A DNA stretch of 64,000 bases from Gemmatimonadaceae bacterium (GTDB taxonomy: Bacteria > Gemmatimonadota > Gemmatimonadetes > Gemmatimonadales > Gemmatimonadaceae). The first letter of the stretch is position 1. Every line of letters starts with the position of its first letter. The notes below the pieces were generated by a model. It did no database searches and was not told where the DNA came from. It saw only the letters and a program-made list of their open reading frames with translations. The stretch covers positions 332,147-396,146 of the forward strand of contig JBBEBQ010000010.1 of assembly GCA_040882285.1 (NCBI GenBank), given 5' to 3'. A program made the position numbers and the translations under genes. Shown here piece after piece: positions 691 to 55,052 of the stretch.

Positions 691-713
691 TACTAGTCAC
701 TAGTCACTAGTCA
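691..713. repeat. Direct heptad array (ACTAGTC)x3
   Basis: Three tandem copies of ACTAGTC plus a partial copy fill the gap between two convergent genes and run into the stop codon (TCA on the plus strand) of the RidA-like gene. The same heptad and its ACTGGTG variant recur in a foldback at 10585-10678. It has no T-tract, so it is not a classical terminator. It is one of about eight 7-bp-period arrays in the window. Confidence 0.85.
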
Positions 714-1073
714 CGTCTTCTCAATGAGCCCCTCCGCCTCGATCTCGACCAGCATGTCCGGATCGATCAGCCGCGCGACCTGGACCATGCTTGTGGCCGG
801 GCGAATCTCGCCGAAGAAGGAGCAGTGCGCGCGGCCGATCTCCTCCCACTGGTCGATGTCGGTCACGTAGATCCGCGTCCGCACGATGTCGCTCAGCCGC
901 GCGCCGGCGCGGTGCAGCGCGGTCTCGATGTTGGTAAGCGTCTGGATGGCCTGGGCGTGGGGGTCGCCCTTTCCCACGAGCGGGCCGCCGTCGCTCGTGG
1001 CCGTCGTGCCGGACACGTAGATGTGCGAGCCCACGCGGACGACCCGCGAATACCCCACCACGGGCTCCCACAT
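711..1073 (-). CDS. RidA/YjgF/UK114-family deaminase-like protein
   Basis: A 120-residue protein of the Rid family. Family members hydrolyse reactive enamine/imine intermediates or act on related small molecules in the cytosol, usually as trimers. Visible family features are VGSHIYVSGTTA near the N-terminus, the central NIETAL helix, and RTRIYVTDI with a downstream RPATSMVQV segment. The Arg of RTRIYVTD matches the substrate-carboxylate-binding Arg of active members. The start is uncertain. ATG 1073 has no Shine-Dalgarno, and the upstream in-frame codons read TRVNISTDS, which resembles the usual family N-terminus. A CTG at 1101-1103 preceded by GGAGG may be the real start. Confidence 0.85.
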   Translation of the reverse strand: MWEPVVGYSRVVRVGSHIYVSGTTATSDGGPLVGKGDPHAQAIQTLTNIETALHRAGARLSDIVRTRIYVTDIDQWEEIGRAHCSFFGEIRPATSMVQVARLIDPDMLVEIEAEGLIEKT

Positions 1074-1147
1074 GCTGTCGGTCGAGATGTTTACGCGCGT
1101 CAGGGCCGCCTCCAGGAAGATTCTGAAGTAGAGGAATATGCTGCTTC

Positions 1148-1337
1148 CGACTGAGGACTGAGGACCTTGCGGACTCAGAACTAACTACAATTGCGGATCG
1201 GCGACTAATTGAGGACCGAGGATGGGCCCAACCGCGCGGAGGAAGCGATAGGTGTTTCTTTCCGCAATCCTCAATCAGTCCTCGATCGTCAATGGCCGTT
1301 AGTCCTGAGCCCGCAAGGGTCCTCAGTCCTCAGTCCG
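1148..1337. repeat. Long imperfect foldback built from heptads (GGACTGA type)
   Basis: Outer arms 1148-1185 and 1298-1337 are reverse complements with only a few mismatches and short indels. A weaker inner pair follows (about 1190-1222 and 1261-1293), leaving a loop of about 40 bp. Inside the arms GGACTGA-like units recur every 7 bp. The element fills the space between the divergent RidA-like and sigma-factor genes and ends 10 bp before the proposed sigma promoter. No coding potential is evident; the sigma reading frame stays open through it by chance. Confidence 0.85.
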
Positions 1338-1346
1338 CAATCCTAC

Positions 1347-1383
1347 GGATGTGACCCAAGCACGCCACCATATAGTCTATATC
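1347..1383 (+). promoter_or_regulatory. Candidate ECF-type promoter of the sigma gene
   Basis: GGATGTGAC (1347-1355), 19 bp, then GTCTATATC (1375-1383). The same two blocks at the same spacing occur at 4322-4358 before another gene of the operon. The spacing and the GTCTA -10 block resemble ECF promoters (for E. coli sigma-E, GGAACTT and TCTRA). Transcription would start at about 1384-1388, so the GTG at 1386 would be nearly leaderless, which fits the lack of a Shine-Dalgarno. Autoregulation is inferred. Confidence 0.55.
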
Positions 1384-1385
1384 CT

Positions 1386-1937
1386 GTGACGGACCTCACT
1401 GACGAGCAGGTCGTCGACGCGGTGCTGGGGGGAGACACGGACGCATTCGCGGTCCTGGTGTCCCGTTATACCGCGCGATACGCGCGCTTCGCGGTGCGCA
1501 TGCTCGGCAACCGTGAGGACGGGGAAGAAGCTTTGCAGGATGCGTTCGTGCGCGTCTACCGCGCGCTGGGCAAGCGGGACCGGAAGAGCGCTTTTGGTCC
1601 GTGGTTTCATTCGATTCTGTCGAATCAATGCCGGACGGCGGCGAGCAGGCGCGCCAACCGGCTGCGGCTGGTGGTGCACGACGAAGGGGCGCTCGAGCGG
1701 GCGGCGGTTGATTCTCCGGCTCCCGCCGGCGGCGATGGGTCCGAGATCGAGACCGCGATCGGAAAGCTGGATCCGGCGCAGCGCGAAGTGTTCCTGATGA
1801 AGTACGTGGAAGAGATGAGCTACGAAGAGATTGCGGAGGTCACCGGTGTCGGAGTTTCGGCACTCAAGATGCGCGTGAAGCGCACGGCGGACCATCTGCG
1901 TGAACTGATGGGGGAGGTACCGCATGAAGCAGGATGA
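1386..1937 (+). CDS. ECF-family RNA polymerase sigma factor
   Basis: A 183-residue sigma-70 group IV protein that directs RNA polymerase to a small regulon. Region 2 covers about residues 5-75 (ending near AFGPWFHSILSNQCR) and region 4 about 115-175, with REVFLMKYVEEMSYEEIAEV and the helix-turn-helix GVSALKMRVKRT. GTG 1386 is chosen because VTDLTDEQVVDAV is a typical ECF start. The frame runs upstream to 1209, but that part is foldback repeat. The 3' end overlaps the next gene by 14 bp, the usual arrangement of a sigma with its anti-sigma. Confidence 0.93.
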   Translation: MTDLTDEQVVDAVLGGDTDAFAVLVSRYTARYARFAVRMLGNREDGEEALQDAFVRVYRALGKRDRKSAFGPWFHSILSNQCRTAASRRANRLRLVVHDEGALERAAVDSPAPAGGDGSEIETAIGKLDPAQREVFLMKYVEEMSYEEIAEVTGVGVSALKMRVKRTADHLRELMGEVPHEAG

Positions 1938-2496
1938 CGAGGATTTCCTCGAGCAGATTGCGAGGCCGCTTCGCGAGCCGGTGGAGATGAGCACGGGGTT
2001 CGAGGCGCGGGTCATGGCCGCGGCGCGCAAGCGTGAAGGCACCAGCGTGCTCGCGTGGATCGTGCGCCCGCGCGTTCTGCGTCTTTCGCCGCTGGCGGGA
2101 CTCGCGGCGGCCGCCGGGATCGCGCTCGCGGTGCTCACGCTGGACCGCGCGGGCTCTGAGCGCGTCGCGACACAGGTGGCCGCGACGTTGCCGGCCGCGC
2201 CCGCGGCCGCGGCCGACACGATCAAGCTCGTGCAGTTCATGCTGGTCGCGCCCGAAGCGCGCACGGTGTCCCTCGTCGGCGATTTCAACGACTGGGATTC
2301 GACGGCAACGCCGCTGCGCGAAGCGGCCGACGCGGGCGTGTGGACGATCACGGTGCCGCTCGCGGCGGGCAGACATCAGTACGTGTTCATGGTGGACGGC
2401 AATCGCTGGACGCCTGATCCCGCGGCGCCCACGGCGGTCGAGGACGACTTCGGCATGCCGAACTCGGTGATCACCGTCGGGGAGAGTGCGACGTGA
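1924..2496 (+). CDS. Anti-sigma-like membrane protein with C-terminal CBM48/AMPK glycogen-binding domain
   Basis: 190 residues. An acidic cytosolic N-terminus (about 1-55) precedes one membrane segment near residues 57-77 (LAGLAAAAGIALAVL), then an Ala-rich linker, then an E-set/CBM48-type domain from about residue 100. That domain carries VSLVGDFNDWDS, a VWTI strand, YVFMVDGNRW, and a DDFGMPNS end. Position after the ECF gene and topology suggest it holds the sigma factor and senses something outside. No ZAS His/Cys motif is visible, so the anti-sigma role is inference. It overlaps the next gene by 4 bp. Confidence 0.8.
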   Translation: MKQDDEDFLEQIARPLREPVEMSTGFEARVMAAARKREGTSVLAWIVRPRVLRLSPLAGLAAAAGIALAVLTLDRAGSERVATQVAATLPAAPAAAADTIKLVQFMLVAPEARTVSLVGDFNDWDSTATPLREAADAGVWTITVPLAAGRHQYVFMVDGNRWTPDPAAPTAVEDDFGMPNSVITVGESAT

Positions 2497-3149
2497 TCCG
2501 CATTCTGTTCCGCAGTCTCACTATTGCCACGGTGCTGACGGCGCTCGCGGCGTTCGCGGCGTCGGCGCAGGACGCGCGCGTGTCGACGCGCCTCGACGCG
2601 CGCACGGCGGCCGCGGTCACGCGCGTCGTCGATTCGGCGCGGTCGCGGTCGCTGCCCACGGAGCCGCTCGTGCAGAAGGCGTTGCAGGGCGCGGCGAAGC
2701 GCGCGCCGTCGGCGCGTGTGCTGGCTGCGGTCAGCGAGCTGCTGGGCGAGCTCTCGACGGCGCGCTCCGCGCTCGGCCAACGGTCCACGGAAGCCGAGCT
2801 GGTGGCCGGCGCGGGCGCGCTGCACGCGGGCGTTCCCGAGGCGACGCTCTCGCGGATCCGCGAGCTGCGCGGCGGCCAGTCAGTGACGGTCGCCGTGGGG
2901 ACGCTGGCGGATCTCGTGGCCCGCGGCGTCCCGGTGGACGCCGCGGTCAGCGCAATCCTGGCCCTCGTCGAGCGGCGCGCCGCCGACGGGGACGTCATCG
3001 CGTTCAGCAATCAGGTAGGGCGGGACATCGCCGCGGGCGCGCCGCCCGCGGTCGCGGCCAGAGTGCGAGCCCGCGGACCCGGCGCGCGTCCTGCAATAGT
3101 TCCGGGCCGGCCCGACAACGCCGGGCGCGGCCGGCCACCGGCGGAGTAG
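2493..3149 (+). CDS. Secreted Ala/Arg-rich helical protein, paralogue of 4394-5074
   Basis: 218 residues starting at GTG 2493. The signal peptide ends at AAFAASAQ. The mature part is predicted mostly helical. It aligns over its length with the product of 4394-5074: a V..V..AR.R.LP...L.Q.AL pattern, then LV.RG.P.D.A, then a low-complexity Gly/Arg/Pro tail. I know no function. Being in the sigma operon and having a paralogue in the same operon suggests an envelope role tied to that regulon. The 4-bp overlap with the previous gene implies translational coupling. Confidence 0.7.
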   Translation: MIRILFRSLTIATVLTALAAFAASAQDARVSTRLDARTAAAVTRVVDSARSRSLPTEPLVQKALQGAAKRAPSARVLAAVSELLGELSTARSALGQRSTEAELVAGAGALHAGVPEATLSRIRELRGGQSVTVAVGTLADLVARGVPVDAAVSAILALVERRAADGDVIAFSNQVGRDIAAGAPPAVAARVRARGPGARPAIVPGRPDNAGRGRPPAE

Positions 3150-3195
3150 GCGCCTGCCGGCCGCCCCTGGAACAGTTTCTTTCACTACAAGGAAC

Positions 3196-4317
3196 ATGCG
3201 GAATCTGATCGCGCTGGCAGGCGCCGCAATGTGCGGATGGTCGTCGCTCGTGTTCGCGCAGGCCGGAGTTTATTTCGACGCGGGTGGCGCCCGGGTCCGG
3301 TATGGGGACACGGTTCAGGTGAGTGCCGCTACGGTCGGCGCGTCCGCGTATTCACTCACCCGCAACACGGGCTTCTCCGCCACGCTCTCCGGCTCGACGA
3401 CGCAGCAATCGAGCTGGACGACATTCGGCGCCGCGCAGGGTTCGGTCCTCACGCCCGCACTCGCTTTCGCGCGGGGCGAGCTGCACGGCGGCGGCTCCAT
3501 CACCTCGTACGGCGCGGGTTCGGGGAGCGGACAGCTCGCTGGCGGCGGCAGGCTGCACCTCTCGGGGCGCAGCGCGGGGGCATGGCTCGGCGCGAGCGCG
3601 GGGAGCGTGAAAGATCCCATCGGCTGGCGATCCATGAACGCGGGCGAACTCGGCGCCTGGATGCAGACCGGCTTCGCCATCGCGCAGGCGGTGATCATGC
3701 CGGTGCGGATCGCCGGCGGCCTGCGCTACACAGACGTCGAGGGAACGATCAGGTTCGACAACTCCCGCCTGGAGCTGATCGGCGTCGCCGGGATGCGTTC
3801 GGCGATCGACGGCTATGATGACGATCCGGATCCGTGGGCGAGCGTGAACGCGACAGCCTGGCTGTTGCGCGCGGTCGGCATCACCGCCGGCATCGGCAGC
3901 TATCCTGCCGACCCGGGGCAGGATTTTTCCGCCGCCAGGTACGTCACGCTCGGCCTGAGGGTCGCGCCGATGAACACGCGCCGCTCTCCCGTGTTGCTGT
4001 CCGCCGACGTTCTCGGAGGCACGCGCGTCGCTCCGCCCGCTATGACGGTGACCGCTGGTCCCGGCGCGGTGCGCACGATCACGTTCCGGGCTACCGCGGC
4101 GCGGACCGTGGAGATCATGGGCGACTTCACTGATTGGACTCCCGTTCAAATGAGTCCGGGGCGGCCGTCGGGAACGTGGGCCATCTCGCTGCCGATCTCC
4201 CCCGGCGTGCACCAGCTCAACGTGCGTCTCGATGGCGGAAGCTGGGTCGTGCCTGAGGGGCTTACCGCGATAAAGGATGAATTTGGCGGGTCGGTGGGGA
4301 TTCTGCTGGTCCCGTGA
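3196..4317 (+). CDS. Outer-membrane barrel-like protein with C-terminal CBM48-type domain
   Basis: 373 residues with a signal peptide ending SLVFAQ. Residues 20-275 are repetitive amphipathic strands with Gly/Ser turns, consistent with a beta-barrel. Residues about 285-373 form an E-set/CBM48-like domain with VEIMGDFTDWTPV, a TWAISLPI strand, HQLNVRLDGGSW and KDEFGGSVG, the same layout as in the anti-sigma-like protein. Such domains bind alpha-glucans in known proteins. Whether this one does is unknown. A Shine-Dalgarno-like AAGGA lies just before ATG 3196. Confidence 0.75.
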   Translation: MRNLIALAGAAMCGWSSLVFAQAGVYFDAGGARVRYGDTVQVSAATVGASAYSLTRNTGFSATLSGSTTQQSSWTTFGAAQGSVLTPALAFARGELHGGGSITSYGAGSGSGQLAGGGRLHLSGRSAGAWLGASAGSVKDPIGWRSMNAGELGAWMQTGFAIAQAVIMPVRIAGGLRYTDVEGTIRFDNSRLELIGVAGMRSAIDGYDDDPDPWASVNATAWLLRAVGITAGIGSYPADPGQDFSAARYVTLGLRVAPMNTRRSPVLLSADVLGGTRVAPPAMTVTAGPGAVRTITFRATAARTVEIMGDFTDWTPVQMSPGRPSGTWAISLPISPGVHQLNVRLDGGSWVVPEGLTAIKDEFGGSVGILLVP

Positions 4318-4321
4318 AAGA

Positions 4322-4358
4322 GGATGTGACGGAAGGCGCGGATCGGCTGGTCTATATC
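4322..4358 (+). promoter_or_regulatory. Second candidate ECF-type promoter
   Basis: GGATGTGAC (4322-4330), 19 bp, then GTCTATATC (4350-4358), identical in both blocks and in spacing to the site before the sigma gene. Transcription would start at about 4360, giving a leader of about 34 nt with an AGGAGCAAGGA ribosome-binding site before ATG 4394. It would boost the two last genes of the operon separately. Confidence 0.5.
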
Positions 4359-4393
4359 TGCGTACCGAGCCACATCCCATTCAGGAGCAAGGA

Positions 4394-5074: not shown

Positions 5075-5162
5075 TCGAAGGTGAGGTAAGCGCTGGCGAC
5101 CGCCATGGCGCGGTCGCCGGCGTCCTTCCGTTTTGCTTTTCACATCGAACAGGAGCATTCAG

Positions 5163-6068: not shown

Positions 6069-6082
6069 CTTTGGAGCCTGTG

Positions 6083-6124
6083 AAAAATCCCCTGTCCGAA
6101 GCGTTCGGATGGGGGATTTTTTTG
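6083..6124 (+). terminator. Intrinsic terminator of the ECF operon
   Basis: A long stem, AAAATCCCC...GGGGGATTTTTTT, with an inner CCGAA/TTCGG stem, ends in a seven-T tract. It lies 15 bp after the DUF4382 stop. Confidence 0.92.
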
Positions 6125-6222
6125 CGTCCTCCGAGGGGGACACCAGTCTCAGGAAACTGGGCGATTTTCCCGGGTTAAGCGCGTAGACGCGGACTTAAGG
6201 GCCCAATGGAAGCAGCAGCGAA

Positions 6223-6240: not shown

Positions 6241-6303
6241 AATAAGAGGCATCACCGCGGGAGCCATGAGGGCGACAGCGGCCAGTCAGCGGAGGTTGAC
6301 ACA

Positions 6304-6827: not shown

Positions 6828-6843
6828 ATTGAACTACCACTGA

Positions 6844-6891
6844 GAACTGAATAGCTGCCCGCTGCCAGCTGGAAGCTGTCCGCTTGTCAGC
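6844..6891. repeat. Left arm of inverted heptad repeat flanking the four-helix-bundle gene
   Basis: About 48 bp in which GCTG recurs every 7 bp (AGCTG, CGCTG, AGCTG, AGCTG, CGCT). It is the reverse complement of 7391-7440 with few mismatches; AGCTGCCCGCT and AGCTGTCCGC are shared exactly. Confidence 0.85.
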
Positions 6892-6991
6892 CGACGGCAT
6901 GTTGACTCTTCGCGAAGATCGAACAGCGGATTGATGTTTGCCGGACGGAAGTGATTCACGCCTTGGCTCGGTTGAGGCGCAGACTTCCTGG

Positions 6992-7390
6992 GTGAGCGAC
7001 TATAAGAAGCTGCGCGTTTGGAGAAAGGCGCACTCTCTGGCGATCAATGCGCACCGCGTGGCAAGCCGGATGCGCGGGTCGCAGTATTCGAGCTTCCGAT
7101 CTCAGGTTATCCGTGCGGCCATGTCGGTGCCGACGAACATCGTCGAGGGACGGGAGCAAAAGGGCGAAGCCGGCTTCGCGCGCTTCCTCCGAATCTCGCT
7201 CGGGTCGCTTTCAGAGCTGGAGTATCACTTGCTTGCTGGACGCGACGTCGGCGCGATCTCGACGAGCGATCATCGTTCGCTCTCCAGCCAGGTCGAGGAA
7301 GTACGCATGATGCTCCACGGTCTTGTGCGAAAGCTCGAGAGCACCGGGAAATTGGCAGGTCAGCCACGACGAACGGTCAACAGGTCGTAG
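6992..7390 (+). CDS. Four-helix-bundle protein (S23/IVS-encoded family)
   Basis: 132 residues from GTG 6992. VSDYKKLRVWRKAHSLA is the typical family opening, followed by SQVIRAAMSVPTNIVEG near residues 45-60 and the long helix RISLGSLSELEYHL. Members form small helical bundles that oligomerise and bind nucleic acid, as in 23S rRNA intervening sequences and as Avd in diversity-generating retroelements. No rRNA, reverse transcriptase or template repeat lies nearby. ATG 6938 in frame is possible but would add a non-family N-terminus. The gene sits exactly between inverted heptad repeats. Confidence 0.85.
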   Translation: MSDYKKLRVWRKAHSLAINAHRVASRMRGSQYSSFRSQVIRAAMSVPTNIVEGREQKGEAGFARFLRISLGSLSELEYHLLAGRDVGAISTSDHRSLSSQVEEVRMMLHGLVRKLESTGKLAGQPRRTVNRS

Positions 7391-7440
7391 GCTGGACGGC
7401 GGACAGCTACCAGCGGGTAGCGGGCAGCTTATCAGTTTTC
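7391..7440. repeat. Right arm of inverted heptad repeat flanking the four-helix-bundle gene
   Basis: Reverse complement of 6844-6891. It begins at the stop codon of the four-helix-bundle gene and contains CAGCTAC, CAGCGGG, TAGCGGG and CAGCTTA in 7-bp phase. Confidence 0.85.
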
Positions 7441-10584: not shown

Positions 10585-10678
10585 GTGACTGGTGACTGGT
10601 GACTGGTGACTAGTGACAACGGGCTGGCAGCCTTTATTGCACGTCATCACTAGTCACTAGTCACCAGTCACTAGTCAC
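10585..10678. repeat. Foldback of ACTGGTG/ACTAGTG heptads
   Basis: Left arm 10585-10617 has four tandem GTGACTG/GTGACTA units. The right arm 10646-10678 is its reverse complement with three differences in 33 bp. The loop is 28 bp. The element lies between two co-directional genes and would form a very stable RNA hairpin without a U-tract. The heptad matches that of 691-713. Confidence 0.9.
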
Positions 10679-10688
10679 CAATTGCCAA

Positions 10689-16872: not shown

Positions 16873-16920
16873 AGCTATTAGCTATTGGCTATTGGCTATT
16901 GGCTATTGGCTTTTGGCTGG
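16873..16920. repeat. Direct heptad array (GGCTATT)n
   Basis: Six tandem 7-bp units (AGCTATT x2, GGCTATT x3, GGCTTTT) and a partial. No inverted partner is seen within 150 bp, unlike the foldbacks at 33573 and 54957 which use the same heptad. Confidence 0.9.
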
Positions 16921-16962
16921 AGCGGAGCGCGGAGTCCTCCCCGGTGTACGAAACCGGCTAGG

Positions 16963-16983
16963 ACGCAGCACGCAGCACGCAGC
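16963..16983. repeat. Direct heptad array (ACGCAGC)x3
   Basis: Three exact tandem copies of ACGCAGC just after the GGCTATT array and before msrP. The heptad differs, but the period is the same. Confidence 0.85.
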
Positions 16984-17004
16984 GCAGTTCAAATGGAGCC
17001 CGCA

Positions 17005-19907: not shown

Positions 19908-25594
<5,687 letters not shown>

Positions 25595-25610
<16 letters not shown>

Positions 25611-31160: not shown

Positions 31161-33568
31161 GCCTGCGGCTCGGAGCCGTACTCCTCGCGCTGATCGTCTC
31201 GGCGCCGGCGCTGCGCGCGCAGGACCACGGCGCCGCGGCGCTGGCGAGAGCCGTCGCGCTGCTCGGACCGGAGACGCCGCGCGTGTTGTACATCGCCGCG
31301 CATCCGGACGACGAGGACGTGCGGCTCATCACCTGGCTGTCGCGCAGCGGCCGCGCCGAGGTGGCGTACCTGTCGCTCACGCGCGGCGACGGCGGGCAGA
31401 ACCTCATCGGCAACGAGCTCGGCGAAGCGCTTGGCGTGCTCCGCACGCAGGAGCTGCTGGCGGCACGGCGGATCGACGGAGCGAAGCAGTTTTTCGCCCG
31501 CGCGTACGATTTCGGTTACTCCAAGAGCGCGGAAGAGACGTACACGCACTGGCCGCGGGATTCGCTGCTCAACGACGTCGTCCGGGTCGTGCGCGCGTTC
31601 CGCCCGCACGTGATCGTGGCCACGTTCTCCGGCACGCCGCGCGACGCGCACGGCCAGCACCAGGTGTCGGGGCAGCTCGCGCGCGACGCGTATGATCTCG
31701 CGGGCGACGTCGCGCGGTTCCCGGTCGCGGAGTACGGCGAGCCGTGGACTCCGCTCAAGCTGTACCGCAACGCCGGATTCTATCCCGACGGTCCGCACGT
31801 GCTGATGAACGTCGGCGAGTACGATCCGCTGAGCGGGATGTCGTACGACCAGATCGCGAGCGTGAGCCGGTCGCACCACAAATCGCAGGGGCTTCGCGGT
31901 AACTACCGGCTCGGAGAAGTGACGAGCCGGTACTTCCGGGAAGCTTCGCGCGTGACGCCCGAGATCCCGCGCGAGCAGGAGCGGTCGGTGCTCGACGGCC
32001 TGCCGGGCGTCGTTCGGAACGGCTCCAGCGGGAGCGGCAATCGCTCGGCCGCCGCGACGGTGGACGTCCGCTCGCCGCCTTCCGCCATTCCGTACATCGC
32101 CCTGCACGCGCCGCGCAACGACGACGAGCGCGCGCGGTACGAGCGCGCGGCGATCGCGGCAACGGGTCTCGCGTTCGAGGCGCTCGCCCCGCGTTCGTAC
32201 GTCGCGCTCGGCGACAGCATCGTGCTCGATTACGCGCTGCACAATCGTGGCACGGTCCCGGTCACGATTGACTCCGCGGCGGGCGCGTTCCCATCCGAGA
32301 CCGTTGCGCCAGGCAAGTCGGTGCGCTGGAAGGGCACGCTCCGTCCCGCGCGCAAGCTCGAGCCGTGGTGGCTGAAGCAGCCGCGCGTCGGCGACATGTT
32401 CGCCGGTCCGCCTCCGGCCGCGTCGGACGACCAGATCGCGCAGGCCGACTGGCCCCGGGTGAAGGTGCGCGTCGAGGGACTGCCGCGGCCGGTCGCGCTG
32501 AACGCGCACCCGGTGCACCGGCTGAGCGAGGGGTTCTACGGCGACTTGTACTCTCCGCTCGTGGCCGCGCCGGGCATCACGGTGACGCCGTCGCCGGCAC
32601 ACTCCTTCGCGCGCGCGGGGACGCGTTTCGAGCGCGACGTGTATGTCAGCGTGCGGTCGAGCTTCGACGCCGAGAAGACCGTTTCGGTCAGACTCGATCT
32701 TCCATCGGGACTGTCGGCATCGCCGGCGGTCGCCCAATTGACGCTGCCGTCCGGCGCGACACGCACGGTCGTCTTCCGGATCACCGGCACCGCGCCGCCG
32801 GGCGAGCATCGGCTGAGGTTGCGCGCCGAGTCGGACGGCGAGGTGTTCGGTGAGGCCGTGAGGATCGTCGATTATCCGCACATCTCGCTGCAGCAGATGT
32901 ACGAGCCGGCGGAGATCAAGTTGCATGCGGTGCCGGTAGAAGTTCCGTCCGGTCTCTCGGTCGGCTACATCGCCGGGAGGGCCGACGCGGGGCCGCAGGT
33001 GCTGCGCGAGCTGGGCGTGCCGGTCACGCTGATCGAGCCGGCGGAGATTCCGCGCCTCGATCTCGCGCGCTTCCCGGTAATCGTGATCGGGCCGCGCATG
33101 TACGAAGCGAGCGCGGATCTCCTCGAGCACAACGGCCGGCTGCTGGAGTACGCCAACAACGGCGGGCGCCTGGTCGTGCAGTTCGGGCAATACATGATGA
33201 GCGGCGCGGGGATTCTGCCGTACCGCATCACGATCTCGCGCCCTCCCGATCGCGTCACGGACGAGAACGCGCCTGTGACGATCACCGACCCGGCCGCGCG
33301 CGAGCTGACCTACCCGAATCGGATAACGCTCGCGGATTTCGAGGGCTGGGTGCAGGAGCGCGCGACGTTCATGCCGGACGAGTTCGACCCACGCTATCGC
33401 ACCATGCTGGCGATGAACGATCCCGGCGAGCCGCCCGTGAACTCGTCCATTCTCGTGGCGCCGGTGGGCCGCGGAACCTACGTGTACGTGACGCTCGCGC
33501 TGTTCCGCCAGCTGGAGGACGGAGTGCCGGGCGCGGTGCGCCTGTTCGTGAATCTGCTGGCGCCATGA
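31157..33568 (+). CDS. Exported PIG-L-family deacetylase with C-terminal NEW3-like domains
   Basis: 803 residues, signal peptide ending PALRAQ. PIG-L/LmbE zinc deacetylase domain at about 40-280: AAHPDDED (zinc ligands His, Asp, Asp), SLTRGDGGQN and the later HGQHQVSG His pair. The rest is beta-rich with a NEW3-type sandwich (GLSASPAVAQLTLPSGATRT) and a C-terminal ThuA/glutamine-amidotransferase-like fold (FPVIVIGPRMYE, NGGRLVVQFGQY). It probably removes N-acetyl groups from an envelope or imported sugar; the substrate is unknown. Starts at GTG 31157 overlapping the sucA stop. Confidence 0.88.
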   Translation: MSLRLGAVLLALIVSAPALRAQDHGAAALARAVALLGPETPRVLYIAAHPDDEDVRLITWLSRSGRAEVAYLSLTRGDGGQNLIGNELGEALGVLRTQELLAARRIDGAKQFFARAYDFGYSKSAEETYTHWPRDSLLNDVVRVVRAFRPHVIVATFSGTPRDAHGQHQVSGQLARDAYDLAGDVARFPVAEYGEPWTPLKLYRNAGFYPDGPHVLMNVGEYDPLSGMSYDQIASVSRSHHKSQGLRGNYRLGEVTSRYFREASRVTPEIPREQERSVLDGLPGVVRNGSSGSGNRSAAATVDVRSPPSAIPYIALHAPRNDDERARYERAAIAATGLAFEALAPRSYVALGDSIVLDYALHNRGTVPVTIDSAAGAFPSETVAPGKSVRWKGTLRPARKLEPWWLKQPRVGDMFAGPPPAASDDQIAQADWPRVKVRVEGLPRPVALNAHPVHRLSEGFYGDLYSPLVAAPGITVTPSPAHSFARAGTRFERDVYVSVRSSFDAEKTVSVRLDLPSGLSASPAVAQLTLPSGATRTVVFRITGTAPPGEHRLRLRAESDGEVFGEAVRIVDYPHISLQQMYEPAEIKLHAVPVEVPSGLSVGYIAGRADAGPQVLRELGVPVTLIEPAEIPRLDLARFPVIVIGPRMYEASADLLEHNGRLLEYANNGGRLVVQFGQYMMSGAGILPYRITISRPPDRVTDENAPVTITDPAARELTYPNRITLADFEGWVQERATFMPDEFDPRYRTMLAMNDPGEPPVNSSILVAPVGRGTYVYVTLALFRQLEDGVPGAVRLFVNLLAP

Positions 33569-34677
33569 GGGGAGCTATTGGCTGTTGGCTATTGGCTCTT
33601 GGTAACTGCCTACGCCGCAGCTCATATCCGCTGTTGCCAACAGCCAACAGCCAACAGCTAACAGCTGTTGTTCTTTGCCTCGCATTAGCGGCGTGTTCCG
33701 GCGATGGACGTACCGTACTTACGGTCTATTCACCCCACGGCAAGGACCTGCTCGGCTACATGGAGACGGAGTTCGAGAAAGCCAATCCGTCGGTGGACGT
33801 GCAGTGGGTGGACATGGGGTCGCAGGAAGTGCTCGACCGGATTCGCGCCGAGGGCGCGAATCCGCAGGCGGACGTCTGGTTCGGCGCGCCGGCGGAAGCG
33901 TTCGACCGCGCTGCCCGCGAGAACCTGCTCGAGCCGTATACACCGACCTGGTCGGCCGCCGTGGACGGCGAAGCTCGGCATCCGCAGCATCTCTGGTACG
34001 GCACGTATCTCACGCCGGAGGTGATCGGCTACAACAGCGAGGCGCTGAGCGCGGCCGAGGCGCCGCAGGACTGGGACGACGTGCTCGATCCGAAGTGGAA
34101 GGGGAAGCTGCTCATCCGCGACCCGGTGGCTTCCGGGACGATGCGCGCTATCTTCGGCGCCATCATGCTGCGCTCGCTCGCGCAGACGGGATCAGAGGAG
34201 GCCGGTTACGACTGGCTGCGGCGGCTGGACGCGAACACACGCGAGTACGTGCTCAACCCGACGATCCTGTACCAGAAGCTCGGGCGGCAGGAGGGGATCG
34301 TCACGCTCTGGGACATGCCCGACATCGCGACGCTGCAGCAGCGGACGCGGATCCCCGTGGACTACGTGATTCCCGCGAGCGGCACGCCGTTGCTGGTGGA
34401 CGCAATCGCGATCGTGCGCGGCACCGATCAGCCCGCGGTTGCGCGAGAGTACTACGAGTTCGTGACCAGCGAGCCCGTGCTGCTCGAGTCGGCGAAGAGA
34501 TTCCTGCGCATCCCGGCGCGAACCGATCTGCACACGGATTCGCTGCCGGCCTGGATCCGCGACGCGAACGCGCGCATCAAGCCGATGCCGATGGACCGCG
34601 AGATCCTCGCGCGCGATCTCGACCGGTGGATGAAGTACTGGGACGCCAACATCCGAAACCAATCGCGCCGTAGGTGA
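33565..34677 (+). CDS. Solute-binding lipoprotein of a Fe3+/phosphonate-type ABC importer
   Basis: 370 residues if read from ATG 33565, which overlaps the PIG-L stop. Lipobox LAAC gives a lipidated Cys at about residue 44. The binding-protein fold follows (TVLTVYSPHGKDLLGYME, QADVWFGAPAEAFD, GYNSEALS, LIRDPVASGTMRAIFGAI, ASGTPLLVDAIAIVRG). The family includes FbpA-like iron and 2-aminoethylphosphonate carriers. No clear Tyr pair for iron is seen, so the substrate is open. The first 40 residues are encoded by a heptad foldback; TTG 33634 would give a 20-residue lipoprotein signal instead. Confidence 0.88.
   Translation: MRGAIGCWLLALGNCLRRSSYPLLPTANSQQLTAVVLCLALAACSGDGRTVLTVYSPHGKDLLGYMETEFEKANPSVDVQWVDMGSQEVLDRIRAEGANPQADVWFGAPAEAFDRAARENLLEPYTPTWSAAVDGEARHPQHLWYGTYLTPEVIGYNSEALSAAEAPQDWDDVLDPKWKGKLLIRDPVASGTMRAIFGAIMLRSLAQTGSEEAGYDWLRRLDANTREYVLNPTILYQKLGRQEGIVTLWDMPDIATLQQRTRIPVDYVIPASGTPLLVDAIAIVRGTDQPAVAREYYEFVTSEPVLLESAKRFLRIPARTDLHTDSLPAWIRDANARIKPMPMDREILARDLDRWMKYWDANIRNQSRRR
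33573..33666. repeat. Foldback of TTGGCTA/TTGGCTG heptads inside a coding start
   Basis: Arms 33573-33606 and 33633-33666 are reverse complements at 29 of 34 positions (counted by eye), loop 26 bp. Units are GGCTATT, GGCTGTT and GGCTCTT in 7-bp phase. The element begins 5 bp after the PIG-L stop codon and is translated as part of the binding-protein N-terminus if ATG 33565 is used. Confidence 0.9.
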
Positions 34678-40044: not shown

Positions 40045-40070
40045 TGGTGCGGGTCGGCGCTCGTGCGTCT

Positions 40071-40160
40071 CAGGGACAATCGCTCCCTTCGGGCGCTACG
40101 CTAGCTCCGCGCTTCGCGCGTCGCTCGCTAAGACGCGCCCTGCGGGAGCGATTGTCCCTG
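40071..40160. repeat. Hairpin element A with conserved CTACGCT...CGCTAAGACG core
   Basis: Perfect 17-bp arms CAGGGACAATCGCTCCC (40071-40087) and its reverse complement (40144-40160); pairing extends imperfectly outward to about 40058-40174. The loop holds CTACGCT (40096-40102) and CGCTAAGACG (40126-40135). Elements at 44831 and 48492 share this core but not the arms. It lies between two minus-strand genes; no T-tract. Confidence 0.85.
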
Positions 40161-40245
40161 CGAGCACCGAGCGCCTCACTCAGCACGGGCCGCGATAGCC
40201 CGCGCGCCAGCGCGCGGGCACGGCGGAAAGCCTGGTCATGACTGA

Positions 40246-44830: not shown

Positions 44831-44945
44831 CCGGGCGCGGAGCGTACGTCCGACAGGGCTCTCCTCTGCGGCTACGCTCGCAAACAGCGCTCGCTAACAC
44901 GCCGCTGAGGAGAGCCCTGCCGTGCGTACGCTCCTCAGGCCCCGG
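44831..44945. repeat. Hairpin element B with conserved CTACGCT...CGCTAACACG core
   Basis: Arms 44831-44866 and 44907-44945. The inner 13 bp (CAGGGCTCTCCTC) are perfect, with imperfect pairing outward through AGCGTACG. The loop has CTACGCT (44872-44878) and CGCTAACACG (44892-44901). It lies between the divergent bmp and nadB genes. Confidence 0.85.
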
Positions 44946-48491: not shown

Positions 48492-48571
48492 GCAGCAGAC
48501 GGCTCCCAATCGTCCGGCGGGCCTACGCTTCGCTAACACGGCCCTCCGGACGATCGGGAGCCGTCTGCTGC
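48492..48571. repeat. Hairpin element C with conserved CTACGCT...CGCTAACACG core
   Basis: Arms 48492-48522 and 48541-48571 pair at 29 of 31 positions (counted by eye). The 18-bp loop is almost only the core: CTACGCT (48523-48529) and CGCTAACACG (48531-48540). The arms span nearly exactly from the nadC stop to the stop of the convergent acyl-CoA dehydrogenase. No T-tract. Confidence 0.88.
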
Positions 48572-50807: not shown

Positions 50808-50861
50808 GATCTCTCCGTGGAAGCGGGCGCGCCCGGTGGCGCGAGTCCCGGGGAGCTAAAG

Positions 50862-52928
50862 CTACCCGCCCGACGGAGTCGGGACAGGGGCGCGGGCCGC
50901 GTCCCGGAGCTGCTCCGTCAGCTGCGCCGGATCCCGCGTCGGAAGGTTGCAGGTAAAGCCGCGGCAGACGTACGCCGTGGCCCCTCCCGCGGCATCCCGT
51001 CCACGCAGCAGTGCCACTTTGCCCGCCCGGGCCGGATCGCCACCGGCGAGAACCAGCGCGGGCACGTACGTGCCCGCGGCAGCGCGCACGAGCTGCCTGA
51101 AATCGTCGCCGGCCGGATCGCCGGCGATGGCGACCTGCACGCCGCCGCGCGCCAGCATGTCGGCGACGCCCAGCAAGTGCCCGAACGCTATCGCGTGCCT
51201 GCTCATGGACGTGGCGAGCGGGCGGAGGACGCGCTCGGCGCGCTTGCGATATGTCTCGTCGCTCGTCAGCTCGGAGATGCGGAGGCAAAGCTCCGCGGCG
51301 AGCGAGCTGCCCGCCGGCACTGCGTTGTCGGCGACGTCGCGCGGACGCGTGATCAGCTTCTCGGCGTCGCGGGCCGTGTCGAAGAACACGCGGGACTCCT
51401 CGTCCCAGAATTGGCCGGTGATCGCGGCGGAGATCTCCAGCGCCCGGTCGATCCACTGCTCGTCGAACGTCAGCTCGTAAACGGAGATGAAGCCGAGTGC
51501 GACCGCGGCGTGATCCTCCAGAAAGCCCGGGATGCGGCTGACGCCGTCCTTGCGGGAGCGCAGCACCCGCCCGTCGCGAACCATCTCTCGATGCAGCAGC
51601 GCGGCGTTTTTCAACGCCATCGCGCGGAACCGCTCGTTATCGAAGGCGCGGGCGGCCTCCGCTACCGCGCGCAGCATGAGACCGTTCCATCCCGCGAGAA
51701 TCTTCTCGTCGCGGCCCGGCCAGACACGGCGCGAGCGCGCTTCATACAGCATCGTCTTCGCGCCCTCGATCGCCTCGGCCAGTTCGGTCGCCGTCGCGCC
51801 GAGTCGCGCCGCGAAAACGGCGGGCTCCGAGGCCACGAACAGAATGTTCGCTCCCTCGAAGTTTCCGCCGGGGGTCACGCCGTGATACGACTTCATTAGC
51901 GCCGAGTCGTCGCCCAGGAGCCCATCGAGCTCCGCTTCGCTCCAGACGTAGAACTTTCCCTCGTGTCCCTCGCTGTCGGCGTCCAGCGAGGAATAGAAGC
52001 CGCCTTCCGGCGATGTCATCTCTCGCTCGACCCACGTGATGGTGTCGAGCGTCACGCGCTTCACTTCCTCGTCGCCGGTCGCCTGCCACAGGTGGACGCC
52101 GAGGCGGAGGAGCAGCGCGTTGTCGTACAGCATCTTCTCGAAGTGCGGCACCAGCCACTCGTCGTCCACGGAGTAGCGCGCAAAGCCGCCGCCGATCTGA
52201 TCGTAGATTCCGCCGCGCGCCATCCGGCGGAACGAATTGAGCGCGATGTCGGTCGCGTGGCGGCTGTCCGTCCGCGCCCCGTGCCGCAGGAGAAAATCGA
52301 GCGCCATCGCCTGGGGAAACTTCGGGGCCGAGTCGAAGCCGCCGCGTGCGGCGTCGTACCGCTGGGCGATGTTGCGGTACGCGAGCTCGAGCATCCGGTC
52401 CGTGAGCTCGCCCGCGCCGGCGGATGCCGGGGAAGGCTGGTAGATCTGGCGGAGCTGCGCGGCGCTCCTGTTCACGTCGTCGCGGTGCTCGCTGTATGCG
52501 CGCGCGACCGACTCGAGCACCTTGGTGAAGGACGGCATGCCGTGCCGGTCGGTCGGCGAGAAGTATGTGCCGCCATAGAACGGCTCGCCCTCGGGCGTGA
52601 GGAACACAGTCATCGGCCAGCCGCCGTGCCCGGTCATCGCCTGCACGGCCTGCATGTAGATGCTGTCCAGATCGGGCCGCTCCTCACGATCCACCTTGAT
52701 GTTGACGAAGTGCTCGTTCATCAGGGCCGCGGTGGCTTCGTCCTCGAAGGACTCGTGCGCCATGACATGGCACCAGTGGCACGCGGCGTAGCCGATGCTC
52801 AGCAGGATGGGCTTGTCCTCGCGCCTCGCGCGCTCGAGCGCGTCGGCGGACCAGGGGTGCCAGTCGACGGGGTTGTCGGCGTGCTGGAGGAGGTAGGGGC
52901 TGGATTCGTTTATTAGGAGATTGGGCAT
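50862..52928 (-). CDS. Thioredoxin-domain protein of the YyaL/SPATA20 (DUF255) family
   Basis: 688 residues. N-terminal DUF255 thioredoxin-like domain with [40 protein letters not shown] (CxxC near residue 50) and [19 protein letters not shown]. An (alpha/alpha)6-barrel-like region follows ([43 protein letters not shown]). Family function is poorly defined (redox or sugar-epimerase-like). Divergent from crcB. Confidence 0.92.
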
Positions 52929-52984
52929 TGCGTTTGGAAGCTTTGCATAATTCCGACCAGCGGAAACCGACGGGATGGAAGGGA

Positions 52985-53117
52985 GGAGAGCGTTGTGCGT
53001 TTACCGTTAAAGCGTTCTGCGTAAGGACGTGAGAGCGGGGGGAGAACCCCGCCAAGAGGCCCACCGCAGCCACGGCCTGACGCGCAACGGAACGACGGTG
53101 AACGCACAACGCTCTCC
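52985..53117. repeat. Foldback of GCGTT-type heptads
   Basis: Arms 52985-53007 and 53095-53117 pair at 22 of 23 positions; weaker pairing continues inward. CGTT recurs every 7 bp in the left arm (AGCGTTG, TGCGTTT, ACCGTTA). The loop contains a small CGGGG/CCCCG hairpin near 53036-53051. It sits between the divergent yyaL-like and crcB genes, so it is not a terminator. Confidence 0.85.
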
Positions 53118-53169
53118 GTAGTTTGGCCCCGGCATCGCCGAGAACGACACGCCGTAATAACTTGTATGG

Positions 53170-53553
53170 ATGCTGGCAATGATAGCCCTGGGCGGCGCCG
53201 TCGGATCAGTCACGAGATATCTGCTCGGCGGAGTGGTTCAACGCACGGCCGGGATGGCGTTCCCCGTGGGGACTCTGATGGTCAATGTCTCGGGATCGTT
53301 CCTCGCCGGGTTTCTGCTGCGCTATTTCATGAACGTCCAGACCCACCCGATGCTTCGCGCGGCGCTGATCGTCGGCTTCTGCGGCGGGTTCACCACGTTC
53401 TCCGCGTTTACCACGGAGACGCTGGGGCTGTTCGAGGGCGGAGAGTACGCGAGGGCCGCGTTGTACGTCGCGGCCAGTGTCGCGCTCTCGCTCATGGCGG
53501 TGTTCGCCGGCTTCGCGGCTGGGATCGTCGCCGTGCCGCACCATTCACGCTGA
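53170..53553 (+). CDS. crcB: Fluoride channel FluC/CrcB
   Basis: 127 residues, four membrane helices. Family motifs: GGAVGSVTRYLLGG, FPVGTLMVNVSGSFLAGFLL, and GFCGGFTTFSAFTTETLG with the Phe and Thr residues that line the fluoride path. Dual-topology dimers expel F- from the cytosol. I see no fluoride riboswitch upstream. ATG 53170 is used; 53179 is possible. Confidence 0.93.
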   Translation: MLAMIALGGAVGSVTRYLLGGVVQRTAGMAFPVGTLMVNVSGSFLAGFLLRYFMNVQTHPMLRAALIVGFCGGFTTFSAFTTETLGLFEGGEYARAALYVAASVALSLMAVFAGFAAGIVAVPHHSR

Positions 53554-53578
53554 TCCGGTCCGCCGGAAGGGATGCTCC

Positions 53579-54958
53579 GTGTCTGAAGATCTGACTCGTT
53601 ATCTGGATGACAACGACGCGAGGATTCGCGACGAGCTGTTCGACCTGCTGAGGATTCCAAGCGTCAGCGCGCGGTCCGAGCACAAGGGCGACATGACGCG
53701 GACGGCCGAGTGGGTGCGGGACTCGCTCAGCGAGCTCGGCTTCGAGACGAAGATCCATCAGACGAAGGGTCATCCGATCGTCGTCGGCGAGTGGAGAAAG
53801 GCTCCCGGCGCGCCGACGGTACTCGTTTACGGCCACTACGACGTGCAGCCGCCGGAGCCGCTCGAGCTGTGGACGTCGCCGCCGTTCGAGCCGACGATCC
53901 GGGACGGCAAGATCTTCGCGCGCGGCTCGGTGGACGACAAAGGCCAGTTCTTCCTGCACATCAAGGCGGTGGAGGCGCACCTGAAGACGCGCGGCAAGCT
54001 GCCCGTGAACATGGTCTTCCTCATCGAGGGCGAGGAGGAGATCGGGAGCGAGAACCTCGCCGAATTCGTGAACAAGCAGCGCGACTTGCTGAAGGCGGAC
54101 GCGGTAGTGATCTCCGATTCGACCATGTACGCGGCGGGGCAGCCGTCGATCCTCTCGTCGCTGCGCGGACTGGCGTACTTCGAGATCAACGTGCAGGGGC
54201 CGGCGAGCGACCTGCACTCCGGCATGTACGGCGGCGCCGTCGTCAATCCGGCGACCGCGCTCGCGAAGATCATCGCGACGTTCCACGACGCCAGGGGGCG
54301 AGTGGCCATCGACGGCTTCTACGATGCCGTCCGCGAGTGGGAGCCGGAGATACGCGAGCAGATGCGCGCCCTGCCGGCGGACGACGCCGCCTTTCTCAAG
54401 GAAGTGGGCGCGACGGCACTCGGCGGCGAGGCGGGCTACACGACGCTGGAGAAGCTGTGGACGCGGCCGACGTGCGAGGTGAACGGACTCCTCAGCGGCT
54501 ACACCGGCGAGGGCGCCAAGACCGTGCTGCCGGCGCACGCGATGGCGAAAGTGAGCTGCCGCCTGGTTCCCGACCAGCAGCCGCAGGAGATCGAGCGGCT
54601 GATGCAGGCGCACGTCGCGCGGGTGGCGCCGAAGGGAGTGACGGTGACGTGCGAACATCTGCACGGTGGCCGCGCGTGGAAGGCCACGCTGAAGGGCCCC
54701 ATCTTCGACGCGGCGCGCAGGGCGCTCGAGTCCGCGTTCGGTAAAGCGCCGGTGATTACAGGCGAGGGCGGCTCGATTCCGGTCGTCAGCGACTTCGAGC
54801 AGATCCTCGGCGCGCCCGTGCTGCTGGTCGGCTTCGGGCTTCCGGGCGAGAACGCGCACGCGCCGGACGAGTGGATCAGCGAGGAGAACTTCCGCCTGGG
54901 GATGCGGGCGATGGCGGAGATGTGGGACCATTACGCCGCCGCTGTCGCGGCGGCGTAG
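53579..54958 (+). CDS. M20-family dipeptidase
   Basis: 459 residues from GTG 53579 (GGAAGGG upstream). Zinc ligands and catalytic residues: VYGHYDVQPPEPLE (His, Asp), ARGSVDDKGQFFLH (bridging Asp), LIEGEEEIGSEN (catalytic and ligand Glu), VISDST (Asp) and a C-terminal ENAHAPDEW His. The dimerisation domain lies at about 180-340. Likely a cytosolic dipeptidase, with no signal peptide. Confidence 0.93.
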   Translation: MSEDLTRYLDDNDARIRDELFDLLRIPSVSARSEHKGDMTRTAEWVRDSLSELGFETKIHQTKGHPIVVGEWRKAPGAPTVLVYGHYDVQPPEPLELWTSPPFEPTIRDGKIFARGSVDDKGQFFLHIKAVEAHLKTRGKLPVNMVFLIEGEEEIGSENLAEFVNKQRDLLKADAVVISDSTMYAAGQPSILSSLRGLAYFEINVQGPASDLHSGMYGGAVVNPATALAKIIATFHDARGRVAIDGFYDAVREWEPEIREQMRALPADDAAFLKEVGATALGGEAGYTTLEKLWTRPTCEVNGLLSGYTGEGAKTVLPAHAMAKVSCRLVPDQQPQEIERLMQAHVARVAPKGVTVTCEHLHGGRAWKATLKGPIFDAARRALESAFGKAPVITGEGGSIPVVSDFEQILGAPVLLVGFGLPGENAHAPDEWISEENFRLGMRAMAEMWDHYAAAVAAA

Positions 54959-55052
54959 CTGTTGGCTGTTGGCTATTGGCTCTTAGCTACCCGCATCGCA
55001 TTTCCCGTCGTTTCGCCCCAAGCCAACAGCCAATAGCCAACAGCTAATAGCT
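54957..55052. repeat. Foldback of TTGGCTA/TTGGCTG heptads between convergent genes
   Basis: Arms 54957-54988 and 55021-55052 pair at 28 of 32 positions (by eye). Units GGCTGTT, GGCTATT and GGCTCTT lie in phase. It starts within the stop codon of the dipeptidase gene and ends 4 bp before the tamB stop. Same heptad set as 33573-33666 and 16873-16920. Confidence 0.92.

What the first reader, a model, noticed from the sequence alone, without database searches (positions are those of the whole stretch)
691..55052. A family of 7-bp-period arrays, mostly foldbacks, with locus-specific heptads
Arrays occur at 691, 1148, 6844/7391, 10585, 16873, 16963, 33573, 52985 and 54957. All have a 7-bp period but use different heptads (ACTAGTC/ACTGGTG, GGACTGA, AGCTGNN, GGCTATT, ACGCAGC, GCGTTNN). 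Most are paired as imperfect inverted repeats with arms of 23-50 bp and loops from about 26 bp up to 500 bp. They lie between convergent, divergent and co-directional genes alike, so they are not simply terminators. The nearest described class I know is the heptameric STRR sequences of heterocystous cyanobacteria. A foldback form with many heptad types in this kind of organism looks undescribed.
Basis: partly seen in the sequence, partly recalled or inferred. Interest (0 to 1): 0.78.

Follow-up and report, generated by a model that had tools for sequence, protein, structure and literature searches.

The report
Heptad foldbacks belong to IVP elements
The 7-letter hairpin repeats in this bacterium are the arms and the gene-less satellites of small selfish-looking DNA elements built around a long-unexplained four-helix protein (23S-IVP), and the repeat sequence tends to follow the protein gene between species and phyla.

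Summary
The arrays are real and enriched: 56 lag-7 arrays in 464 kb of this genome, 49 intergenic by a crude gene model, against 0.1 simulated. Heptads are not locus-specific: a few families are dispersed in many copies. And between the arms at 6842-7440 lies a 23S_rRNA_IVP (PF05635) gene.

Of 98 IVP genes in this family and order, 82 lie between inverted arms, mostly 7-bp periodic. All 12 plasmid loci examined have the layout, one inside 23S rRNA; lag-7 arrays flank IVP genes in many phyla.

IVP and heptad go together. Across phyla, arm similarity rises with IVP identity. At one syntenic IVP locus three congeners carry GTGACTA, GTGATTA and GTGATCA arms, and dispersed copies mostly match, changed in place at 4 of 5 shared sites. 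At 4 of 5 armed locus pairs the element is more diverged than its flanks; at the armless IVP it is not.

Best reading: transposase-less foldback elements with satellites, a genome-wide form of the rRNA IVS. The chemistry is unknown; this genome shows no reverse transcriptase or Y1 transposase.

The parts
6938..7390 (+). 23S_rRNA_IVP (S23, four-helix-bundle) gene in the loop of the largest foldback; 150 aa from the first listed start, domain from about 7004
   Evidence: PF05635, E 3.3e-27; AlphaFold2 model pLDDT 86, best PDB match 2gsc (XCC0516), DGR Avd 4dwl at TMt 0.81-0.86
6842..6912 (.). 5' arm of the IVP element, heptads AGCTGNN/CGCTGNN
   Evidence: 71-nt arms, 79% complementary, 457 nt apart; sequence
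7370..7440 (.). 3' arm of the IVP element; overlaps the end of the IVP ORF
   Evidence: element present in G003, internally deleted in G001, absent in G002
692..714 (.). Solo GTGACTA-type array (read as ACTAGTC on +)
   Evidence: same place in G001 carries GTGATTA x5
1149..1344 (.). ORF-less foldback of the GGACTGA family, about 190 bp, many dispersed copies in the genus
   Evidence: absent in G001, present in G003
10585..10679 (.). ORF-less foldback, GTGACTR family, three bases after a stop codon
   Evidence: collapsed to 22 nt in G001, other heptads in the same spacer in G002/G003
16873..16918 (.). GGCTATT array (one arm)
   Evidence: GGCTATT x5 alone in G003, none in G002
16963..16986 (.). 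ACGCAGC array (3'-arm reading of the GCTGCGT family), beside the GGCTATT array
   Evidence: similar composite at L161 1877-1970
33573..33666 (.). GGCTNTT foldback inside the start of a solute-binding lipoprotein gene; the first arm encodes part of the signal peptide
   Evidence: all three congeners have the first array only
52985..53117 (.). ORF-less foldback, GCGTTNN family (heptad like that of IVP element L004)
   Evidence: present in G002 and G003, GCTGCGT x3 instead in G001
54957..55052 (.). ORF-less foldback, GGCTNTT family, with AGCT ends, starting within the stop codon of an M20 peptidase gene
   Evidence: present in G003, absent in G002, other heptads in G001

Best explanation
The arrays are parts of one class of compact foldback elements. 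A full element is: 5' arm of heptads, an IVP gene, then the same heptads inverted as 3' arm (about 0.5-0.65 kb in this genome). ORF-less satellites (5' arm, a loop of about 35 nt, 3' arm; about 95 bp for GGCTNTT) share the heptads and, where compared (L002), the ends of an IVP element, and are dispersed in high copy number, mostly in intergenic DNA. 23S rRNA intervening sequences are the same element sitting in an rRNA loop.

How it most likely works. Shown: arms and gene form one unit; heptad and IVP type go together; satellites are copies of one another; presence at a site is polymorphic; site contents differ between congeners. Inferred: the IVP, a four-helix protein with the fold of DGR Avd, recognises its own heptads as DNA or RNA, and this drives spread and replacement of elements at occupied sites, with cutting and copying supplied by host enzymes, since neither a reverse transcriptase nor a Y1 transposase was found in this genome. 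The element looks selfish; the rRNA and intergenic sites tolerate it. Confidence is about 0.9 for element identity and the satellite relation, about 0.65 for cognate recognition, and about 0.4 for IVP-driven replacement as the mover.
For: (1) IVP genes are flanked by inverted arms: 82 of 98 beat the 99th percentile of mispaired flanks, against 15 of 98 for direct orientation. Best arm period is 7 in 59 of 84 and 8 in 13 of 84. (2) Same anatomy elsewhere: lag-7 arrays at 11 of 12 plasmid IVP loci and lag 8 at the twelfth; the Azospirillum one is inside LSU rRNA. Of 79 named loci, 50 upstream and 43 downstream flanks reach 16/21 at lag 7, against 0-2 at the other lags from 4 to 12. (3) Arms track the protein: cross-phylum pairs with similar arms rise from 0.7% at 30-40% identity to 38% at 60-70% and 71% (17 pairs) at 70% or more, same strand; 0.4%, 15% and 29% on the opposite strand. 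In the family 0 of 2000 Mantel permutations reach the correlation. (4) Satellites: of 31 GGCTNTT foldbacks 27 begin and 24 end with AGCT, like IVP element L002. 43 of 43 distinct foldbacks of two families have the same polarity. Within this genome 32 of 157 same-family loop pairs are alike against 0 shuffled, in either orientation. (5) Co-switch: one syntenic IVP locus has GTGACTA/GTGATTA/GTGATCA arms in G000/G001/G002. Sampled units GTGACT:GTGATT:GTGATC are 113:9:0, 29:71:0 and 2:3:32. At 4 of 5 syntenic G000-G001 sites every unit recognised has changed, while hexamer use outside arrays has not. (6) Presence/absence and exchange of heptad type at window sites. (7) Identity valley over four of five armed G000-G001 elements and none at the armless IVP.
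Against: No target-site duplication was seen, and no junction is clean enough to define one. Not every satellite family has a known master: by exact pattern none of 35 of the 44 IVP loci in the genus has GGACTGA arms; G002 keeps 31 GGCTNTT and 47 GGTATCA matches, and G003 118 GTGACTR matches, without a cognate IVP among those I looked at (8 of 10 and 10 of 14). The G000 IVP with GTGACTA arms has lost most of its 3' arm, and of its G001 counterpart L210 only the 5' side is on the contig. In 16 of 98 IVP loci the inverted arms do not pass the test. Only 10 of 79 named loci pass the mispaired control, because that subfamily shares heptads across phyla; with shuffled flanks 54 of 79 pass; for the plasmid loci 7 of 12 exceed the control maximum. 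In the family set 20 of the 22 pairs with at least 70% IVP identity are within the genus, several of them syntenic, so partly measures common descent. L004-L201 shows no valley. One of 5 GTGACT sites did not change, and 3 of 7 GGCTNTT sites have no array in G001. The wobble test for an RNA hairpin was positive in one set and opposite in the other. Binding by the IVP was not tested.
Confidence: 0.75

Rival explanations
1. Heptad foldbacks are functional binding sites of the host: the IVP is a sequence-specific nucleoid or RNA-binding protein, and selection makes the sites follow its changing specificity.
For: Co-switch in place with flanks kept, and loops alike where seen; most heptad positions are nearly invariant while the variable one is not compensated, as for a protein site; IVP genes are under purifying selection, pN well below pS.
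Against: Sites are absent, collapsed or of another family at syntenic places; copy number varies widely between congeners; hundreds of sites would have to be re-selected one by one; several IVP families coexist in one genome.
Confidence: 0.2
2. Avd-like retro-rewriting: the IVP works with a reverse transcriptase supplied in trans, and heptads are copied from a master RNA into satellites as in a DGR.
For: The model matches Avd of the Bordetella phage DGR (TMt 0.81-0.86, E 0.016 or more); change of the same base in every recognised unit at 4 of 5 sites.
Against: No RVT_1 match in G000, G001 or G002, each with 10 IVP matches; 12 of the 60 genomes searched (this one included) have one, G003 among them. 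Draft genomes could miss one.
Confidence: 0.1
3. Ordinary simple-sequence growth: heptads expand by slippage at random intergenic sites and pair by chance or by local inversion; the link to IVP is incidental.
For: Copy number in arrays varies at syntenic sites (692-714: 3 vs 5 units); a Coxiella IVS also varies between strains (PMC4990558, passages).
Against: Few shared families with common ends and homologous loops; inverted arms at 82 of 98 IVP genes; arm similarity tracks IVP identity across phyla.
Confidence: 0.04
4. MITEs of a conventional insertion sequence whose transposase is elsewhere in the genome, with the IVP as passenger.
For: Dispersed, terminal inverted repeats, presence/absence polymorphism.
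Against: A full-length partner with the same ends (L002) carries an IVP gene in a loop of 458 nt; no Y1 transposase in G000-G003; other transposase families were not searched; no target-site duplication seen.
Confidence: 0.08

Closest known systems
23S rRNA intervening sequences with an S23p/IVP ORF (Leptospira, Coxiella and others)
   Same: IVP ORF in the loop of inverted repeats; the Coxiella IVS has tandem heptamers just upstream of the ORF (PMC4990558, passages); the Azospirillum IVS examined here has heptad arms.
   Different: Here the elements lie in intergenic DNA, several families per genome, with abundant ORF-less satellites and differing heptad type at the same site. In the passages read, the IVS is described only in rRNA.
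Heptameric STRR-type arrays of cyanobacteria and the tRNA-Leu intron P6b heptad hairpin of Nostoc
   Same: Dispersed 7-bp arrays (STRR recalled); in P6b degenerate heptads fold into a hairpin (PMC3488679, passages).
   Different: Not linked to IVP genes in the passages seen. Here 11 cyanobacterial plasmid IVP genes are flanked by such arrays, 10 of period 7 and one of period 8.
GGGAATC heptad arrays of Xanthomonas and GGGGA(C/T)T of Nostoc
   Same: Mostly non-coding, 70 and 75 convergent inverted pairs in two Xanthomonas genomes (PMC4692102, passages).
   Different: Studied as quadruplex repeats; a word search inside the paper found no S23, 23S, four helix or intervening. One of its organisms is the source of the IVP structure 2gsc; the link was not tested here.
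Heptad repeat elements of Geobacter metallireducens and TAACTGA repeats of Beggiatoaceae
   Same: Dispersed heptad units: 49 copies with four GGGACCG units, and 15 of 16 class-3 sites with five MTYCTGA units (PMC2700814, passages); 169 sets (PMC4679880, passages).
   Different: Interpreted there as possibly regulatory; no IVP link in the passages seen; the TAACTGA sets are direct repeats but for one.
Diversity-generating retroelements (Avd)
   Same: Fold of the accessory protein; likely homology of PF05635 and Avd stated in PMC10053308 (passages).
   Different: No reverse transcriptase in G000-G002; no template/variable repeat pair was sought.
IVP genes in cas loci
   Same: IVP next to cas4/cas6 or between Cmr2 and Cmr3 was reported as a cas-associated function (PMC3936711, passages).
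   Different: Three plasmid cases here (L174, L177, L184) have inverted arrays of period 7 or 8 around the IVP gene, so they look like inserted elements.

Membership tests
23S rRNA intervening sequence (IVS) | Located inside a 23S rRNA gene | tested here: not met
   No Rfam match in the window at gathering scores; met for the Azospirillum relative L180 (RF02541)
23S rRNA intervening sequence (IVS) | Encodes an S23p/IVP (PF05635) protein | tested here: met
   for 6938-7390; ten matches in the genome, nine over the cut-off
23S rRNA intervening sequence (IVS) | ORF between inverted repeats | tested here: met
23S rRNA intervening sequence (IVS) | Excised from the transcript by RNase III | not testable with these tools
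   No RNA data
STRR heptameric repeats | Tandem 7-bp units dispersed in intergenic DNA | tested here: met
STRR heptameric repeats | Heterocystous cyanobacterium (as recalled) | tested here: not met
   Window genome is in the family of G018, which I take for Gemmatirosa (Gemmatimonadaceae) because its contig C3 has 1,106,233 bases like NZ_CP007129
MITE of a transposase-type element | Terminal inverted repeats and dispersed copies | tested here: met
MITE of a transposase-type element | Target-site duplication | tested here: inconclusive
   Syntenic empty sites looked at by eye; none seen, flanks about 70-97% identical
MITE of a transposase-type element | Full-length partner with a transposase | tested here: not met
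   Partners found carry an IVP gene; no Y1 transposase in G000-G003; other transposase families not searched
Diversity-generating retroelement | Reverse transcriptase | tested here: not met
   No RVT_1 in G000, G001, G002
Diversity-generating retroelement | Avd-type accessory protein | tested here: met
   Fold only: TMt 0.81-0.86 to 4dwl chains, 9-12% identity
Intrinsic terminators | Placed at gene 3' ends | tested here: not met
   58 arrays with both neighbours: nearest end 3' in 32, 5' in 26; contexts close to expectation by spacer length (crude gene model)

The most novel reading that the evidence does not exclude
A master IVP gene dictates, without a reverse transcriptase, the heptad sequence of hundreds of dispersed satellites: element-guided rewriting or homing that keeps a genome-wide set of target sites in step with one fast-changing recognition protein. 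This would be a new class of mobile element.
Probability: 0.3. Interest if true: 0.95.

Novelty: new variant of a known kind. Interest (0 to 1): 0.86.

Why it matters
Two loose ends of bacterial genomics have lacked a function: the S23/IVP protein family, and dispersed heptameric repeats. The data tie them together in this lineage and at the IVP loci sampled in other phyla, and suggest that rRNA intervening sequences are one face of a more common genomic element. They also give a testable code: protein type predicts heptad, and three congeners provide natural variants at one locus. IVP genes listed as cas-associated may be inserted elements.

Tried and rejected
Locus-specific heptads: rejected. 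Terminators: rejected by placement. RNA-level pairing selection: the excess of wobble-compatible mismatches in the family set (230 vs 174, Wilcoxon 0.013; 226 vs 174, sign test 0.32) was reversed in the cross-phylum set (68 vs 85), so not claimed. Covariation: 1 of 23 pairs with a two-sided change. Master sequence as source of satellite loops: loop core not found in IVP loci beyond a best score of 16 of 32; the shuffled control of that script failed, so this is weak. A general C-to-T bias as cause of GTGACT to GTGATT: hexamer density outside arrays is about equal in the four genomes. Reverse transcriptase and Y1 transposase as movers: neither in G000-G002; G003 has reverse transcriptases but no Y1. 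Phages: no match for one IVP. Viral contigs: 9 hold relatives; 7 of 9 reach 15 or more at lag 7 with an inverted score above the direct one; L319 and L326 do not meet both.

Sample limits. For G001-G003 I chose contigs partly because earlier searches had listed hits on them. Densities there are inflated, and the 10 of 10 retained GGCTNTT sites in G003 come from contigs picked for such hits. The GTGACTR search used for G001 would favour GTGACT, not the GTGATT that prevailed. The G002 sample holds the IVP element itself (L345). The gene model is a crude codon-usage model of my own. Taxon labels are mine, from record titles. L090 counts twice among the 98 IVP genes. I annotated 12 of 25 plasmid hits and examined 79 of the 80 best of 568 named relatives (the list of stretches was capped). 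Pattern counts are overlapping matches. The GTGATCA figure for G002 (58 in the reversed-pattern control column) is not used as evidence; searches show such arrays directly. The period counts were printed before that script failed. The 44 foldback rows hold one twice; one search recounts 43, and within one genome, because some loop pairs are syntenic between G000 and G003.

Paper searches for prior reports: (open-licence PMC only, no preprints). I saw no link of heptad arrays to IVP genes outside rRNA in their listings; I read passages of PMC4990558, PMC4692102, PMC10053308, PMC11270868, PMC3488679, PMC4679880, PMC2700814, PMC3542288, PMC10910872 and PMC3936711 only. STRR and the history of rRNA IVS beyond those passages are recalled.


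Full report
What was checked. The listed arrays exist as described. In 464 kb of this genome (20 stretches plus the window) lag-7 arrays number 56 at 18 of 21 matches, 49 of them outside genes by a crude gene model. Lags 4-6 and 8-13 give 1-5 each and Markov simulations 0.1 at lag 7. Of 59 intergenic arrays at 17 of 21, 38 have an inverted partner within 700 nt. The heptads fall into a few families, not one per locus.

The missing part. Between the arms at 6842-6912 and 7370-7440 lies a PF05635 gene. The genome has ten PF05635 matches. Eight have inverted arms on both sides with best period 7, one (L001) has a strong array on one side, and one (L009) has no such arms. The heptads of these elements are those of the ORF-less foldbacks: GGCTNTT (L002), GTGACTA (L001), GCTGCGT (L008), GCGTTNN (L004), AGCTGNN (L003, L006).

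Generality in the lineage. 49 of 60 genomes of the family and order, this one included, have PF05635 matches. I analysed 102 IVP hits in 99 loci. Of 98 with at least 250 nt on both sides, 82 have inverted arms above the 99th percentile of mispaired flanks and 15 reach it in direct orientation. Lag 7 stands out (35 upstream and 35 downstream of 98 at 16 of 21, against 0-3 at lags 4-6 and 9-12, and 8 and 12 at lag 8). In 84 elements the best arm period is 7 in 59 and 8 in 13, and the median aligned arm is 55 nt.

Generality beyond. Twelve plasmid loci (11 cyanobacterial, one Azospirillum) all have inverted arrays around the IVP gene, 11 of period 7 and one of period 8; 7 of 12 exceed the maximum of mispaired controls, which share heptads. 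The Azospirillum one lies inside a 23S rRNA gene (RF02541, 2156.6 bits), so an rRNA IVS has the same heptad arms; a Coxiella IVS is described with tandem heptamers upstream of its ORF (PMC4990558, passages). Among 79 usable named loci, 50 upstream and 43 downstream flanks reach 16 of 21 at lag 7, against 0-2 at other lags from 4 to 12, in 15 of 20 taxon labels. Against shuffled flanks 54 of 79 have inverted arms and 10 of 79 score as direct repeats. Against cross-phylum mispaired flanks only 10 of 79 pass, because the heptad core TCAGC is shared: it occurs at least twice upstream of the gene in 33 loci from 16 labels, its reverse complement in 11 loci.

Protein and heptad go together. In the family, arms are alike in 86% of 22 pairs with at least 70% IVP identity and in 1.3% or fewer of pairs between 20 and 60% (3.2% of 31 pairs below 20%); 0 of 2000 permutations reach the correlation. 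Twenty of those 22 pairs are within the genus and several are syntenic, so this partly restates common descent. Across phyla the share of similar arms climbs with identity from 0.7% to 71%, and from 0.4% to 29% on the opposite strand. Descent of the whole element explains part of this too. That heptads stay alike at 60% protein identity across phyla, although they change between species of one genus, argues for constraint by the protein (inference).

Satellites. Of 31 GGCTNTT foldbacks of G000 and G003, 27 begin and 24 end with AGCT, as does the IVP element L002. All 43 distinct foldbacks of two families have the heptad in the same reading first, none reversed. Their loops share a core of about 35 nt, found in either orientation: within G000, 32 of 157 same-family and 17 of 168 between-family loop pairs score 12 or more, against 0 shuffled. 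They were therefore copied, not grown in place. Conserved pairs hardly vary, and the variable heptad position is not compensated, which suggests constraint on sequence rather than on pairing.

Turnover at sites. In three congeners the window sites show full foldbacks, single arms, absence, collapse, or a different heptad family in the same place. The IVP element itself is present in G003, internally deleted in G001 and absent in G002.

Co-switch. The IVP loci L001 (G000), L210 (G001, at a contig end) and L017 (G002) are syntenic and carry GTGACTA, GTGATTA and GTGATCA 5' arms. Sampled array units GTGACT:GTGATT:GTGATC are 113:9:0, 29:71:0 and 2:3:32. At five syntenic satellite sites shared by G000 and G001, four have changed in every recognised unit and one has not. 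Ten of ten syntenic GGCTNTT sites found in G003, whose IVP arms kept that heptad, are unchanged in type, though those contigs were picked for such hits; in G001, which also kept it, 3 of 7 stay, 1 has GTGATT and 3 have none. Two sites swapped between GGCTNTT and GTGAYT.

Element replacement. Between G000 and G001 the flanks of the five armed IVP loci are 0.82-0.98 identical (mostly above 0.9), while the element falls to 0.41-0.77 at L001 and 0.51-0.74 at L008, to 0.72-0.87 at L007 and 0.77-0.86 at L002. L004 shows no valley, nor does the armless IVP L009. Synonymous differences are near saturation at L001-L210 (0.757, partial gene) and L008-L213 (0.752), with fewer amino-acid changes, against 0.045 at the armless gene. 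Replacement by a diverged copy at the same site fits best (inference); a local excess of mutation under protein constraint is not excluded.

Mechanism. The IVP model (pLDDT 86) matches 2gsc and 2rld and, more weakly, Avd of a DGR. No reverse transcriptase is found in G000-G002 and no Y1 transposase in G000-G003. I conclude that these are foldback elements without a known transposase, whose protein most likely recognises its own heptads. What cuts and copies is unknown.

Limits. The genomes are drafts; the congener samples are not random; binding, transcription and movement were not tested. Evidence against is listed in its field.

Noticed in passing
window 20447-22656: Eight tandem copies of a 276-bp unit, HAMP repeats inside a 1900-aa hybrid sensor kinase ORF (19908-25610).
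   Followed up: no
window 33565-33666: The GGCTNTT array doubles as codons of a lipoprotein-like signal peptide (MRGAIGCWLLALG...) and lies at the same place in all four congeners; only this genome has the loop and second arm, with the frame kept open.
   Followed up: partly
window 48492-48571, 44839-44934, 40056-40175: Long inverted repeats without heptads (94, 88 and 80% complementary), possibly terminators.
   Followed up: no
L169 7856-8025: A GCTGCGT array sits in the loop of a GTGACTR foldback, like a nested insertion.
   Followed up: partly
L161 1877-1970 and window 16873-16986: GGCTNTT array directly followed by a GCACGCA array: a recurring composite of two families.
   Followed up: partly
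L174, L177, L184: IVP genes with inverted period-7 or period-8 arms between cas6 and cas4 (L174, L184) or between Cmr2 and Cmr3 (L177), so the reported cas association may reflect insertion.
   Followed up: partly
L014, L025, L029, L036, L177 and others: Some IVP elements have an 8-bp period instead of 7 (13 of 84; L177).
   Followed up: no
L009 / L216: An armless IVP homologue, 231 aa open frame in G000, 98% identical between congeners: possibly a domesticated copy.
   Followed up: partly
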